Below, piece after piece: positions 33,340 through 38,158 of a DNA stretch of 64,000 nt (positions are counted from its first letter, which is position 1; each line of letters starts with the position of its first letter). The DNA comes from Clostridia bacterium (GTDB lineage Bacteria > Bacillota > Clostridia > Oscillospirales > Acutalibacteraceae). The notes beneath the pieces were generated by a model, which was not told the DNA's origin, did no database searches, and saw only the letters and a list, made by a program, of their open reading frames with translations. A program made the translations under genes and the position numbers. The stretch covers positions 1-64,000 of the forward strand of contig JAFRUO010000008.1 of NCBI GenBank assembly GCA_017438845.1, written 5' to 3'.

Positions 33340-33650
33340 AAAAAACTTATCCGTAAGGGGCGACCCGATGACCCGCATATCTTCCGATATGCGGGTCAAT
33401 TAATACTGAAAACTTAAAACTTAAAAATGAATAATGTCGGTAGGGGCGACCATCGGTCGCCAGTAATATTGAAAAGTGAATAGTGAAAAGTGAATAGGTA
33501 ATAGGTGTTTGCTTCGCAAACCGTAGGGGACGACGTCCGCGACGTCCCGAGGAAATTATATTTAATATCACAACCAACACCAAAGGAGCAGGGATTTGTT
33601 TTAATATCAAACCGTAGGGACGAACATTGTTCGTCCGATTTTATATTACA
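33340..33650. repeat. cluster of REP-like palindromic repeats
   Basis: The 564-base gap between parC and the SLH gene holds at least four related units of the form GTAGGGG-CGAN-loop-NTCGCC: an 11-bp hairpin at 33370-33397 (GACCCGCATAT arm) after AAGGGGCGA; GGCGACC-ATC-GGTCGCC at 33445-33461; GGGACG...CGTCCC at 33527-33548 with GTTTGC/GCAAAC just before it (33507-33521); and GGACGAAC-ATT-GTTCGTCC at 33618-33636. A direct repeat of GAAAAGTGAATAG is at about 33471-33498. Such units are common in gut Firmicutes intergenic regions. The rest of the gap is AT-rich and holds the promoter of the next gene. Confidence 0.7.
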
Positions 33651-33894: not shown

Positions 33895-35670
33895 ATGAAA
33901 AAGGCAGTTTCCGTAATTTTATGTCTGGTGCTGTTGCTTTGCGCTTCGGTAAGCGTAAACTCAGTAGCGGATAACGAAGAAAAGATTTATTGTACAGCAA
34001 CTATTAAGGATGATTTCGCACCCGACTGTGTTGTGGTCGTTTTTAAAAAATACGCAAGCGAAATCAACAAGGTGCATACGGCAGATGAATTTCCGGGCAT
34101 CGAAATTGAAAAAATTGAAGATTTGTTCAGAGTAGATAATCCCGATGAAAACGACACGGTTAACAAAGAAAACTTCCATCAAATCTATAAACTCACGCTG
34201 AAAAACAAGGGCAAAGAAGAGGTGCTAAACGCAATTATGGTTTTAGAACAGCTGGATTATATTCGCAGTGCCTCTCCCGACTATGTCGTTAGCTCGACCG
34301 TAGACGATAACCAAGATGTTTTCCCCGATGTAAAATACGGCTCCTGGTATTATGATTCCGTAAAAATGATGGCAAACACAGGTCTTATGAAGGGCTATGC
34401 GAACGGTACATTCGGACCCGGCGACAATCTTCAAAGGCAGGACTTTGTAATTGTTCTTGCAAACTTGGAAAATGTTGATTTAACAAAATATGAGAATTTT
34501 GAATGTAAGTTCAATGACGTTCAACCTGCTAAATACTATACTGCGGCAGTGAACTGGGCTGTTTCGGAGGACATTATCAAGGGTTATCAGAACAGCTGCT
34601 TCGGTGTAGGCGACCCGATTACCCGAGAGCAGATCTGCACTATACTCTACAGATATGCCGGCGAGCCCGAGGTCGGAGAGGACGCGGTTAAAGTAATGAA
34701 CGGCTTTAAGGACAGCGGTAATATAAGCGCGTTTGCAAAAGCTCCCATCGCATGGGCGATAGACAGCGGCATTATATCCGGTATGGCAGACGGACGGCTT
34801 GCCCCGACCGCCACGGCTTCAAGAGCGCAGATTGCAAAAATCATACAAAATGTCATTATAAATATACCTCAGATTAATCACAAGGATGTTGAAGTAACAC
34901 CCGAGCTTGTCAGCGAGGTTAAAAGGGCAATTTATGACTGGATTGTTGAAAACTCGTTTGAAGAGTTTAACTATTATAAAATGGACGATCCTACCGAGCC
35001 CTTTGACGAAGAAAAAATCGATGTTGAATTTATAGGTCAATACAGTGATTGTTTGGGAATTAGATTTAAAGCCAATTATGTCGGAAATATCAGCAAAAAA
35101 GTTTGGTACGAAATGTATATGGAAGGGAAAATATATAGTAGTATTATGTGTTATCAGAACAGGTATATTTCTTATTTAGAATATAAGGATTTTTTGACTT
35201 ATCATGAGCCTGGTAGTTATTCGGAAAACTATATTCTTTCAAAAAAAATACATGATAATACAGCTACTGTTGAAGAACGTCAATTATACGAAGAAAAACT
35301 AAAAAACGACGAAAAATTATATAGCTGTGCAACGATTGACGATGACTTTGCAGATGATAGAGTTTTAGTAACCTATAAAAAATCTGCAAGTATAATTAAC
35401 AAAATTCATACAGCGGACGAATTCCCGGGAATTGAAATAGAATCAATAAAGGATTTAACTTATATTGAAGGTTCTGTTGACAGCAAGGAAACTTTAAACA
35501 AAGAAGAGTTTCATCAAATTTTAATGATAACACTTAAAAACAAAGGAAAAGAGGAGGTGTTAAATGCAATATCGCTTTTGGAAAATCGAGACGATATTCA
35601 GTACGTAGGTCCTGATTATCATATTGCTTTAGCAGATACAAGCAAAAAGAACACAAGTGGGTTGTTCTAA
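33895..35670 (+). CDS. SLH-anchored surface protein with two subtilase propeptide-like modules
   Basis: A 591-residue exported protein starting at the ATG after GGGAGGA. Signal peptide 1-24. Module 1 (about 28-130) and module 2 (about 470-580) are copies of the same domain: both have EIxK/IINK-(V/I)HTADEFPGIEIE, NKExFHQI and LKNKGKEEVLNAI. The domain resembles an I9-type subtilase propeptide and occurs a third time in front of the S8 protease encoded next. Between the modules lie three SLH repeats (about 140-190, 203-255, 263-320) with FPDVKYGSWYYDSV- and GYANGTFGPGDNLQRQ-type signatures, which bind cell-wall polymers, and an unrecognised 150-residue stretch. There is no catalytic domain. From about 34.9 kb the DNA becomes clearly AT-richer, suggesting mosaic origin. 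Likely a surface-held partner or inhibitor of the neighbouring protease; this is inference. Confidence 0.8.
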   Translation: MKKAVSVILCLVLLLCASVSVNSVADNEEKIYCTATIKDDFAPDCVVVVFKKYASEINKVHTADEFPGIEIEKIEDLFRVDNPDENDTVNKENFHQIYKLTLKNKGKEEVLNAIMVLEQLDYIRSASPDYVVSSTVDDNQDVFPDVKYGSWYYDSVKMMANTGLMKGYANGTFGPGDNLQRQDFVIVLANLENVDLTKYENFECKFNDVQPAKYYTAAVNWAVSEDIIKGYQNSCFGVGDPITREQICTILYRYAGEPEVGEDAVKVMNGFKDSGNISAFAKAPIAWAIDSGIISGMADGRLAPTATASRAQIAKIIQNVIINIPQINHKDVEVTPELVSEVKRAIYDWIVENSFEEFNYYKMDDPTEPFDEEKIDVEFIGQYSDCLGIRFKANYVGNISKKVWYEMYMEGKIYSSIMCYQNRYISYLEYKDFLTYHEPGSYSENYILSKKIHDNTATVEERQLYEEKLKNDEKLYSCATIDDDFADDRVLVTYKKSASIINKIHTADEFPGIEIESIKDLTYIEGSVDSKETLNKEEFHQILMITLKNKGKEEVLNAISLLENRDDIQYVGPDYHIALADTSKKNTSGLF

Positions 35671-35764
35671 AGATTTAACACATACAAATAAGGGATAGCA
35701 AGATTATATTTTTTATTTGACCGCATTTTTTCATATTTATATGAGAATGAAAGAGAAGATTAAA

Positions 35765-38158
35765 ATGAAAATGATTAAAAGAATATGCGCAGTATTATTA
35801 TCTGTTATACTGCTCTTAAGTATAGCTTCGGGAATAAATTGCTATGGTTTCTCTATTAACGAAGAAGAAAAAATATATTCCAATGCAACTTTATCAGATG
35901 ATTTTGCAGAAGATAAGGTAATCGTTATTATAAAAGAATCTGAAAGTGAAATTAATAAAGTTCATAGTTTTGATGAATTTGATAATGTTGAAATTGAAAG
36001 AGTCGACGATTTAACACTTATTGAGGGTTCTGTTGAAGAAAAAGAGTGTTTAATTAGAAATAATTTTCATCAAATATTAAAAATAACACTCAAAAGCAAA
36101 GGAAAGCAGAATGTGCTAGAAGCTGTTAACAAATTGCAGAAAAACAACAGCTTTTTATATGTTGGTCCTGCTTACAGAGTATATTTACCATCATCGTGTA
36201 ATGAAGAACAAACAGAGATGTCACAACGTTCAACCGTTCCTAATGATTCCTTTTATTCATCCCAATGGGGCTTGCCAAATATTAATGCTTCTTCGGCATG
36301 GGGGATAACAAAAGGGTCAAATAATGTTTTGGTTGGTGTGATTGATAGCGGTATTAATTCTAGCCATGAAGATCTAATTAACAAGGTAGATTTATCTTTA
36401 GGTGGAAATTTTACAGGTGACGGTCAAGGCACGACTGATTTAATAGGTCATGGCACTCATGTTGCGGGTATTATAGGCTCAAACACTAATAATTCGACGG
36501 GAGTCTCCGGTGTGTCTTGGTATGTTCGATTAGTATCTCTTAAGGTTTTTTCAACGGTAAATGGACATGAAGGCGACACAAGTTGTGTGGTATCTGCCAT
36601 TAATTACGCAATAAATAACAATATTAAAATACTAAACTATAGCGGTTGGGCAACAGCGACTCCAGAATTAAGCACTATTATTAATCAATACTCAGGATTA
36701 CTAATTTGTGCAGCAGGAAATGATCAAGCAAATACAGATTCAAATCCGCACTATCCTTCTTCATATCCATCGAGCAATATCATTTCAGTTGCAGCTATAG
36801 ACAGCGATAATAGTTTAGCAAGCTATTCCAACTACGGTGCTTCATCGGTTGACCTTGCAGCACCCGGAACAAGTATTTTAAGTACATACCCCATAGCCTT
36901 GTGTAACAGTCAGGGCAGTACAAATGGACACTATGCTACTGGCTACCATTATATGTCGGGTACCTCAATGGCTACTCCGCATGTTGCCGGTGTAGCGGCG
37001 CTGATAAAGAGCCTTAACTCAAATTTTAATTCCGCTTTTATCAAACGCGCAATTATGGCGCACACTACAAGCGTACCTTCTTTAAGCGGCAAATGTGTGA
37101 CCGGCGGAAAGCTGAACGCATATGCGGCAGTCAATTATGCCAACAACAATAAGTATATTTGTTCAAATTCAGACACTATTCAAGCGGTACCCGGAGGAGT
37201 TCGGGTTTCGGGTTGGGCTTACGCCCACAGCCATCCGAGCAGCAGTTTAAGAATTCATGTGTATATAGGCGGCTCGGCAAGCTCGGGAACAGGAGAACTT
37301 CACGATATTGGAACAACAAACCACTTGAGAAACGATATTAACGATATTTTTGGAATCACGGGAAATCACGGCTTTAGCAAAAGGGTTGCAACCAATTTGC
37401 GAGGAACGCAGGAAGTAAATGTTTACGCAATTAACACAGTCACGGGAACATCAAAGAAAATCGGAAGCGCTACAGTCAATATTCCTGTAGGAGACCCTAC
37501 GGGTAATGTAGACCATATAAATGCTTTACCCGGAAAAATTGACGTTGCCGGTTGGGTGTTTGACTGTGATAATCCCGATTATTCTGTAGAAGTTCATGTT
37601 TATGTAGGGGGGCCTTCGGGCACTCCCGGAGTGGAATCTTTTGCTATAACCGCAGATCAACCGAGACCTGACATAAACGGGCATTACGATATCCTTGGAG
37701 ACCATGGGTTCAGCGAAATACGAACAACGAACAAAAGAGGAACACAGGAAGTTTATATCTATGCCATCAACATCGGTAACGGATCAAACAAGCTTCTCGG
37801 TCATCAAACCGTTACAATACCGACAGGCAACCCCATAGGGCATATAGACCATATCAATATGTCATCGGGTCAAGTATATGTTTCGGGCTGGGCGTTTGAC
37901 TACGACACGCCGTTTTCACCAATTGCCATACACGTATATATCGGAGGCAGTGCAGGAACAACAGGAGCCGAAGGTCATGCTTTATCAACAAACACCTTGA
38001 GGACTGATATTAACAACAATTATCATCTTGAAGGTAACCATGGATTCAGTCACAGTATTACAACAAGCAAAACAGGCACGCAGGAGGTCTATATCTACGC
38101 CATTAATGCCGGCGCAGGTCCCAACATTTGCCTCGGACATCAGTCCGTTACAATTTAG
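35765..38158 (+). CDS. secreted subtilisin-like serine protease (S8) with three C-terminal repeats
   Basis: A 797-residue protease. Signal peptide about 1-30; propeptide-like module about 32-145, homologous to both modules of the upstream SLH protein; S8 catalytic domain about 160-460 with Asp194 (VIDSGINSS), His229 (GHGTHVAG) and Ser401 (GTSMATPHVAG), an intact triad. The C-terminus has three repeats of about 108 residues, each with V(S/A)GW..., IHVY(I/V)GG, DIN, HGFS and GTQEV(Y/N)(I/V)YAIN, likely beta-sandwich binding modules. There is no LPXTG, SLH or membrane anchor. The start ATG at 35765 gives a normal signal peptide; upstream in-frame ATGs are at 35741 and 35747. The gene is AT-rich in its first half and follows the SLH gene by 94 bases with no terminator. 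Confidence 0.9.
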   Translation: MKMIKRICAVLLSVILLLSIASGINCYGFSINEEEKIYSNATLSDDFAEDKVIVIIKESESEINKVHSFDEFDNVEIERVDDLTLIEGSVEEKECLIRNNFHQILKITLKSKGKQNVLEAVNKLQKNNSFLYVGPAYRVYLPSSCNEEQTEMSQRSTVPNDSFYSSQWGLPNINASSAWGITKGSNNVLVGVIDSGINSSHEDLINKVDLSLGGNFTGDGQGTTDLIGHGTHVAGIIGSNTNNSTGVSGVSWYVRLVSLKVFSTVNGHEGDTSCVVSAINYAINNNIKILNYSGWATATPELSTIINQYSGLLICAAGNDQANTDSNPHYPSSYPSSNIISVAAIDSDNSLASYSNYGASSVDLAAPGTSILSTYPIALCNSQGSTNGHYATGYHYMSGTSMATPHVAGVAALIKSLNSNFNSAFIKRAIMAHTTSVPSLSGKCVTGGKLNAYAAVNYANNNKYICSNSDTIQAVPGGVRVSGWAYAHSHPSSSLRIHVYIGGSASSGTGELHDIGTTNHLRNDINDIFGITGNHGFSKRVATNLRGTQEVNVYAINTVTGTSKKIGSATVNIPVGDPTGNVDHINALPGKIDVAGWVFDCDNPDYSVEVHVYVGGPSGTPGVESFAITADQPRPDINGHYDILGDHGFSEIRTTNKRGTQEVYIYAINIGNGSNKLLGHQTVTIPTGNPIGHIDHINMSSGQVYVSGWAFDYDTPFSPIAIHVYIGGSAGTTGAEGHALSTNTLRTDINNNYHLEGNHGFSHSITTSKTGTQEVYIYAINAGAGPNICLGHQSVTI

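What the first reader, a model, noticed from the sequence alone, without database searches (positions are those of the whole stretch)
33895..38158. Surface-anchored double propeptide protein next to a subtilase with the same module: a possible tethered protease-control system
The same about 105-residue module occurs three times: twice in a non-enzymatic SLH protein (about residues 28-130 and 470-580) and once as the prodomain of an intact S8 protease (Asp194, His229, Ser401). Shared words include INK-HTADEFPG-EIE, FHQI and LKNKGKEEVLNAI. I9-type propeptides are known chaperones and tight inhibitors of their own protease. Here two free copies would be fixed to the cell wall by three SLH repeats while the protease is released, suggesting a shield or folding partner acting in trans. 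I know of standalone I9-like inhibitors, but not of an SLH-anchored tandem one.
Basis: partly seen in the sequence, partly recalled or inferred. Interest (0 to 1): 0.78.

Follow-up and report, generated by a model that had tools for sequence, protein, structure and literature searches.

The report
Wall-anchored and signalling subtilase prodomains
A gut-type clostridium carries the "safety-catch" domain of a secreted protein-cutting enzyme not only on the enzyme but also, twice, on a protein fixed to its own cell wall and, in three further genes, on the outer end of membrane proteins that look like gene switches (anti-sigma factors), which suggests a still untested system for restraining and sensing that enzyme.

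Summary
An SLH (wall-anchor) protein (33895-35670) holds two copies, and the adjacent intact S8 subtilase (35747-38158) one copy, of the same ~110-residue module; a profile built without window sequences scores them 135, 126 and 113 bits. The module is a subtilase prodomain: it precedes the S8 domain in 36 other collected proteins, and 15 of 29 members hit Pfam Fervidolysin_NPro-like, mostly weakly. Its confident model (pLDDT 92) is a beta-alpha-beta-beta-alpha-beta plait, compatible with but not diagnostic of I9.

The genome's only other three copies are each the extreme C-terminal, extracytoplasmic end of a single-membrane-span protein encoded directly after an ECF sigma gene, i.e. putative anti-sigma factors; a linker+module unit of the SLH protein is 47% identical to one. 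In another family of the order, enzyme-free module proteins lie in ECF sigma/anti-sigma operons, twice with a module-bearing S8. The exact SLH pair was not seen in other sampled genomes.

Best reading: wall-tethered prodomains restrain the subtilase in trans and anti-sigma copies sense it, like the lysozyme receptor RsiV. Binding, inhibition and signalling are inferred, not shown. New variant of a known kind.

The parts
33895..35670 (+). P0001: SLH protein with two prodomain modules, no enzyme domain (591 aa, signal peptide about residues 1-25)
33973..34299 (+). module A (P0001 27-135), subtilase-prodomain-like
   Evidence: 135 bits with a profile lacking window rows
34318..34854 (+). three SLH repeats (P0001 about 142-320), predicted cell-wall anchor
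   Evidence: PF00395 E 3.4e-30, 3 stretches; nearly 50 further SLH matches in the genome
34885..35220 (+). middle region (P0001 331-442), possibly a degenerate 'NYNGY' domain; not statistically supported
   Evidence: only 5.5 bits with a profile lacking this sequence, while shuffles reach 13
35221..35304 (+). linker SENYILSKK..LKND shared with the anti-sigma-like protein L089
   Evidence: BLASTP P0001 443-569 vs L089 protein 141-259, 47% identity, E 1e-32
35305..35637 (+). module B (P0001 471-581), closest in the tree to the protease's own module C
   Evidence: 126 bits; AF2 pLDDT 92.1, pTM 0.81; tree 98/86 with module C
35747..38158 (+). P0002: secreted S8 subtilase with module as prodomain (803 aa; the likely start may be the ATG at 35765)
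35861..36190 (+). module C (P0002 39-148), prodomain of the subtilase
   Evidence: 113 bits; model pLDDT about 84-94 over most of it
36233..37147 (+). S8 catalytic domain (P0002 163-467), thermitase/deseasin-like; D200, H235, N325, S407
   Evidence: PF00082 E 2.7e-46; VIA-align Z 45.9 (rmsd 1.6, 289 aligned) to 3vv3, 43.9 (1.4, 274) to 1thm; residues
37178..38155 (+). three C-terminal repeats of about 103 residues, function unknown
   Evidence: read from the sequence; no Pfam hit; model pLDDT under 50

Best explanation
The module is the prodomain (fold-helper and temporary inhibitor) of a subclass of S8 subtilases. In this genome the prodomain occurs in three settings: on the subtilase P0002 itself (in cis), twice on the wall-anchored protein P0001 encoded just upstream (in trans, tethered), and at the outer tip of three putative ECF anti-sigma factors. 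I think P0001 captures and restrains mature P0002 or related subtilases at the cell's own surface. I think the anti-sigma copies are receptors for free subtilase: binding or cleavage of the tip would start regulated proteolysis of the anti-sigma factor and release the sigma factor, much as RsiV does with lysozyme. Shown: homology, architecture, gene neighbourhoods, intact protease residues, a confident plait fold, presence of site-2-protease and SLH-ligand enzyme families. Inferred: that the sigma-linked membrane proteins are anti-sigma factors; binding, inhibition, sensing, and any link between the wall protein and the sigma operons, which lie elsewhere in the genome.
For: Three homologous modules. 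The module precedes the S8 domain in 36 other collected proteins and hits Fervidolysin_NPro-like in 15/29 members. Fold model with pLDDT 92, prodomain-compatible topology. The genome has only two S8 genes, and only P0002 carries the module. The genome's other three modules are C-terminal on single-TM proteins directly after ECF sigma genes (TIGR02937 at 71.8, 89.8 and 84.4 bits, cutoff 42.9); of four ECF sigma genes found next to a single-TM partner, three have the module. An orthologous sigma/anti-sigma-module/SLH operon exists in another species of the genus (L086). In G038, G063 and G100, ECF sigma plus a single-TM partner lie beside enzyme-free module proteins, and in L085 and L169 beside a module-bearing S8 as well. 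Linker+module of P0001 shared with the anti-sigma-like L089 (47%). Four free single-module proteins end exactly 6 residues after the helix-capping position, as do the BPN' propeptide and POIA1; two of the four come from one genus. M50 and pyruvyltransferase families present. Precedents: RsiV (PMC5014341), SUB1-ProM (PMC6993865).
Against: No binding or activity data. The model of P0002 does not place the module reliably on the cleft (Foldseek match to pro-subtilisin E, 3whi: rmsd about 24). The helix-capping Glu typical of S8-fused modules (28/37) is absent from all three window modules and all four anti-sigma modules, so affinity may be reduced. Module B has a 17-residue tail that the protease might cut. 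Fold search does not single out I9. P0001 itself is not in a sigma operon. The exact SLH pair was not found elsewhere. Anti-sigma function rests on position and topology; the best NCBIfam anti-sigma match to a module-bearing one is only E 0.076.
Confidence: 0.5

Rival explanations
1. P0001 is a surface-fixed foldase (trans-acting chaperone): its modules fold or activate P0002 as it leaves the membrane, rather than restraining it.
For: Propeptides of subtilases are known intramolecular chaperones (PMC6993865 introduction); P0001 lies directly upstream of P0002 in the same direction; P0002's own module lacks both helix-capping acids (G-P-A) while A and B keep the Asp, so the cis copy might be weak.
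Against: P0002 already has its own complete prodomain; it does not explain the anti-sigma, dockerin-like and lipoprotein copies.
Confidence: 0.15
2. The free modules are shields against foreign subtilases (of competitors or host), not regulators of P0002.
For: Surface anchoring; arrays of diverged modules without an S8 gene on the same contig, e.g. four lipoprotein-like genes in G278 (L078); copies as dockerin-like and free secreted proteins.
Against: Module B groups with the neighbouring protease's own prodomain (98/86), which points to the cognate enzyme; the gene pair is adjacent.
Confidence: 0.15
3. The module has become a general small plait used for other contacts (surface architecture, polysaccharide or peptide binding); the S8 link is ancestral only.
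For: Fold is generic (RRM, S6, ACT-like; best Z 6.9); capping Glu lost in anti-sigma and window copies; appears with SLH, dockerin-like and CotH-like partners.
Against: Conserved module words between A, B and C; 6-residue tails in free copies as in true inhibitors; co-location with S8 genes in L068, L085, L169 and the window.
Confidence: 0.15
4. P0001 is a debris gene: an SLH protein that picked up fragments of tandemly duplicated subtilase genes, without function.
For: Truncated protease duplicates do occur in relatives (L072); P0001 is not seen elsewhere.
Against: Intact 591-residue frame with signal peptide; both modules are complete and score as well as the protease's own prodomain; linker+module unit shared with an anti-sigma-like protein.
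Confidence: 0.05

Closest known systems
Stand-alone subtilisin propeptide-like inhibitors (MEROPS I9: POIA1, yeast peptidase B inhibitor, Arabidopsis SPI-1; TgMIC5; Plasmodium SUB1-ProM, PMC6993865)
   Same: Prodomain-like domain without an enzyme, in SUB1-ProM's case encoded next to subtilase genes; compatible plait topology; C-terminal tail of 6 residues after the capping position in four free relatives of the module, as in POIA1
   Different: The examples named in that paper are eukaryotic proteins; here bacterial, two copies on one wall-anchored protein, and further copies on putative anti-sigma factors; inhibition not shown
RsiV/sigma-V (anti-sigma factor that is receptor and inhibitor of lysozyme, PMC4183432, PMC5014341)
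   Same: ECF sigma operon, single-TM partner whose outer domain would bind an enzyme; RsiV also inhibits its enzyme
   Different: Outer domain is a subtilase-prodomain relative, not the RsiV lysozyme-binding domain; ligand would be a protease; anti-sigma function and signalling untested here
Fervidolysin N-terminal prodomain family, Pfam PF22148
   Same: 15 of 29 modules match at E up to 0.1 (best 3.4e-7); N-terminal to S8 domains
   Different: Window copies fall below the curated cutoff (18.6 and 17.9 vs 21 bits); module is longer (about 110 vs 81 positions)

Membership tests
Subtilase prodomain (Fervidolysin_NPro-like, PF22148) | Pfam gathering score of 21 bits reached by the window copies | tested here: not met
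   P0001 18.6 bits; module B alone 17.9 bits, E 0.0041; related members reach E 3.4e-7
Subtilase prodomain (Fervidolysin_NPro-like, PF22148) | Position directly N-terminal to an S8 catalytic domain in homologues | tested here: met
   37 S8-fused modules incl. P0002 (architectures)
Peptidase inhibitor family I9 (PF05922) | Sequence similarity to I9 | tested here: inconclusive
   1 of 29 members hits PF05922 at E 0.053; hhalign with four I9 sequences: probability 10%, E 0.003, aligned only over the C-terminal 22 columns incl. the capping motif
Peptidase inhibitor family I9 (PF05922) | Beta-alpha-beta-beta-alpha-beta propeptide fold | tested here: inconclusive
   AF2 pLDDT 92, compatible topology, but best matches are RRM/S6/ACT plaits (Z up to 6.9); a subtilase propeptide, 8c4x_B, only at Foldseek rank 34
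Peptidase inhibitor family I9 (PF05922) | Helix-capping acidic pair (Glu69/Asp71 of BPN') | tested here: inconclusive
   S8-fused modules: Glu 28/37, Asp/Asn 34/37; window A S-P-D, B G-P-D, C G-P-A; anti-sigma copies 0/4 Glu, 2/4 Asn
Peptidase inhibitor family I9 (PF05922) | Tight inhibition of a subtilase | not testable with these tools
   needs assay
RsiV-like enzyme-sensing anti-sigma factor (concerns L088, L089, L090, L086, not P0001) | Encoded directly after an ECF sigma factor, one TM helix, extracytoplasmic domain | tested here: met
   L088, L089, L090 and L086; P0001 itself has no sigma gene beside it
RsiV-like enzyme-sensing anti-sigma factor (concerns L088, L089, L090, L086, not P0001) | Match to a curated anti-sigma family | tested here: inconclusive
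   L088 protein matches NF052375 'antisigma' only at E 0.076, 13 bits against a cutoff of 100; L089 and L090 none
RsiV-like enzyme-sensing anti-sigma factor (concerns L088, L089, L090, L086, not P0001) | Ectodomain binds an enzyme and binding triggers site-1 cleavage | not testable with these tools
   only the site-2 (M50) protease family was found in the genome
SLH cell-wall-anchored proteins | Three SLH repeats; pyruvyltransferase genes for the wall ligand in the genome | tested here: met
   PF00395 in 3 stretches; two PF04230 genes in the genome; localisation itself not shown

The most novel reading that the evidence does not exclude
A bacterial protease-homeostasis circuit in which one subtilase prodomain has been reused as wall-tethered inhibitor and as the sensor tip of several ECF anti-sigma factors, so that free subtilase at the surface is both restrained by, and reported through, copies of its own prodomain.
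Probability: 0.3. Interest if true: 0.85.

Novelty: new variant of a known kind. Interest (0 to 1): 0.62.

Why it matters
The stand-alone propeptide inhibitors described in the paper read here are eukaryotic, and my searches of the held library found no paper joining an I9-like or propeptide domain to SLH proteins or anti-sigma factors. If true, this gives a ligand hypothesis for several orphan ECF sigma systems of Clostridia (secreted subtilases), a parallel to RsiV-lysozyme with a protease as signal, and simple modules for tethered protease control.

Tried and rejected
1) I first took the middle region of P0001 (331-442) to belong to a recurrent domain ('NYNGY', A3) found next to module-bearing S8 genes; a profile without P0001 scores it at only 5.5 bits and shuffles reach 13, so I do not claim it. 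2) Suspected that small partner proteins near S8 genes (L068, L092, L032) are PrcB-like, as in dentilisin; no Pfam support, dropped. 3) Fold search of the full P0002 model returned catalytic-domain matches and no usable module placement. 4) Fold search with module B gave generic plaits; no I9 family member stood out. 5) Sequence search of solved structures with the module profiles found no propeptide. 6) A P0001-wide alignment for structure prediction was abandoned because MAFFT placed the NYNGY fragments on module B. 7) A possible ECF promoter element (AACCTTTTT, seen upstream of two sigma operons) occurs in the window no more than by chance and not near P0001. 8) Phylum-wide search beyond the class gave only weak matches in long frames, most over 600 aa, whose architecture I did not inspect.
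Full report
OBSERVATION. The window holds two adjacent forward genes between topoisomerase-type genes and the secE/nusG/rplK region (gene names from my reading of the translations): P0001 (33895-35670, 591 aa) and P0002 (35747-38158, 803 aa). P0001 has a signal peptide, module A (27-135), three SLH repeats (Pfam E 3e-30), a middle region, and module B (471-581); P0002 has a signal peptide, module C (39-148), an S8 domain (E 3e-46) and three C-terminal repeats. A module profile made without any window sequence finds A, B and C at 135, 126 and 113 bits. A-B are 60% and A-C 45% identical. Catalytic D200, H235, N325 and S407 are present.

WHAT THE MODULE IS. In other genomes the module is mostly the segment in front of an S8 domain; counting P0002, 37 S8-fused modules were collected. 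Pfam's Fervidolysin N-terminal prodomain matches 15 of 29 aligned members at E up to 0.1 (best 3.4e-7), the window copies just below its cutoff; PF05922 (I9) matches one, weakly. AlphaFold2 on module B with 28 relatives gives pLDDT 92 and pTM 0.81 with order beta, short helices, beta, beta, helix, beta. Structure searches return many ferredoxin-like plaits (best Z 6.9) with one subtilase propeptide at Foldseek rank 34: compatible with an I9-type propeptide, not diagnostic. A profile comparison with four I9 sequences aligns only the C-terminal 22 columns, including the capping motif.

THE REST OF THE GENOME. The genome (2.24 Mb, 33 contigs, 98% complete) has six modules. The three outside the window are L088 (C6:75 kb), L089 (C27:110 kb) and L090 (C3:64 kb). 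Each is the last ~105 residues of a 229-275 aa protein with a short N-terminus, one TM helix and a linker, encoded directly after an ECF sigma gene (TIGR02937 71.8, 89.8 and 84.4 bits against a cutoff of 42.9). These are putative anti-sigma factors by position and topology; curated anti-sigma families give no real match. Among the sigma-like genes inspected, four lie next to such a single-TM partner; three of these partners carry the module and the fourth (L157) a different large ectodomain. The L090 operon, sigma/anti-sigma-module/SLH protein, has an ortholog in another species of the genus (L086; 28% over the anti-sigma protein). P0001 residues 443-569, linker plus module B, are 47% identical to the L089 protein: an SLH protein and a putative anti-sigma factor share one unit. 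In a tree of 43 modules, B groups with the protease's own C (98/86) and A weakly with L088 (91/68). The genome has just two S8 genes, and only P0002 carries the module. It also has M50 site-2-protease genes and two pyruvyltransferase-family genes.

DISTRIBUTION. Modules were found in 20 of 394 genomes of the order and 19 of 391 of the class; beyond the class only weak matches in long frames. Enzyme-free forms include free secreted proteins (L068, L077, L130, L131), lipoprotein-like arrays (L078), a C-terminal membrane-span form (L091) and dockerin-like proteins (L036, L080, L081, L166-L168; my reading of the sequences, with only a sub-threshold Pfam dockerin match for L080), besides the anti-sigma forms. 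In G038, G063 and G100 the module proteins follow ECF sigma and a single-TM partner gene, and in L085 and L169 a module-bearing S8 is in the same run. Counting loci, 8 of 21 enzyme-free entries (two of the 21 are duplicates), 2 of 6 mixed and 0 of 30 S8-only loci have an ECF sigma gene within three genes; many S8-only loci had short flanks and the sigma-linked ones fall in two lineages, so this is suggestive only. The exact SLH-double-module plus S8 pair was not seen elsewhere.

CLUES TO MECHANISM. In subtilisin-propeptide complexes Glu69 and Asp71 of the BPN' propeptide cap two enzyme helices (PMC6993865), and six more residues lead to the C-terminal Tyr77. The aligned motif is E-P-D/N in most S8-fused modules (Glu 28/37, Asp/Asn 34/37) but S-P-D, G-P-D and G-P-A in A, B and C, and lacks the Glu in all four anti-sigma copies. 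Four free single-module proteins end exactly six residues after this motif, as do the BPN' propeptide and POIA1; anti-sigma copies end after 8-9 and module B after 17. L130 and L131 are from one genus and L068 may be a partial duplicate of its neighbour, so this is supportive, not strong.

INTERPRETATION. Shown: homology, architecture, neighbourhoods and intact protease residues. Inferred: P0001 holds two prodomains at the wall that bind the neighbouring subtilase, and the anti-sigma copies report free subtilase. The precedents are SUB1-ProM, a stand-alone propeptide-like inhibitor encoded beside subtilase genes (PMC6993865), and RsiV, an anti-sigma factor that is both receptor for and inhibitor of lysozyme (PMC5014341). 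Rivals are a surface foldase, a shield against foreign proteases, a general-purpose plait, and gene debris.

NOVELTY. My searches of the held library found no paper linking such prodomains with SLH proteins or anti-sigma factors; most subscription papers are not held, so this is a limited check. I file it as a new variant of known kinds (stand-alone propeptide inhibitors; enzyme-sensing anti-sigma factors).

Noticed in passing
L033 209-1366, L035 3120-3983 and 6280-7179, L082 2687-3382, L086 1498-3333, L090 4626-6143, L098, L108: A second unnamed ~107-residue domain ('NYNGY': YYxGxYNGY...LxEAYxxGxLTxxDI) recurs beside module-bearing S8 genes, on SLH and dockerin-like proteins, and as the outer part of other single-TM proteins next to possible sigma genes; no Pfam or NCBIfam hit to it in those tested.
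   Followed up: partly
whole genome G000: Nearly 50 matches to the P0001 SLH region at about 35-67% identity, a large set of wall-anchored proteins for a 2.24 Mb genome.
   Followed up: no
window 37178-38155: Three C-terminal repeats of ~103 residues on the subtilase (..VSGWA.D...I.VHVYIGG...HGFS...G.QEVYIYAIN..) without Pfam hit; AF2 gave no confident fold.
   Followed up: no
window 33350-33640: Intergenic stretch with several palindrome-like repeats of the type GTAGGGGCGACC..GGTCGCC / CCGTAGGGACGAA..TTCGTCC, resembling dispersed REP-like elements.
   Followed up: no
L134 1318-3219: Module fused to a CotH-like domain (my reading of the sequence, no family search) instead of an S8 domain.
   Followed up: no
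L032 1820-5947: A module-bearing S8 protease that itself carries an SLH-like stretch, so in a relative the enzyme rather than the free prodomain may be wall-anchored.
   Followed up: no
L157 755-2755: The fourth ECF sigma gene of this genome is followed by a 667-aa single-TM protein with a large ectodomain that reads like a beta-propeller.
   Followed up: no
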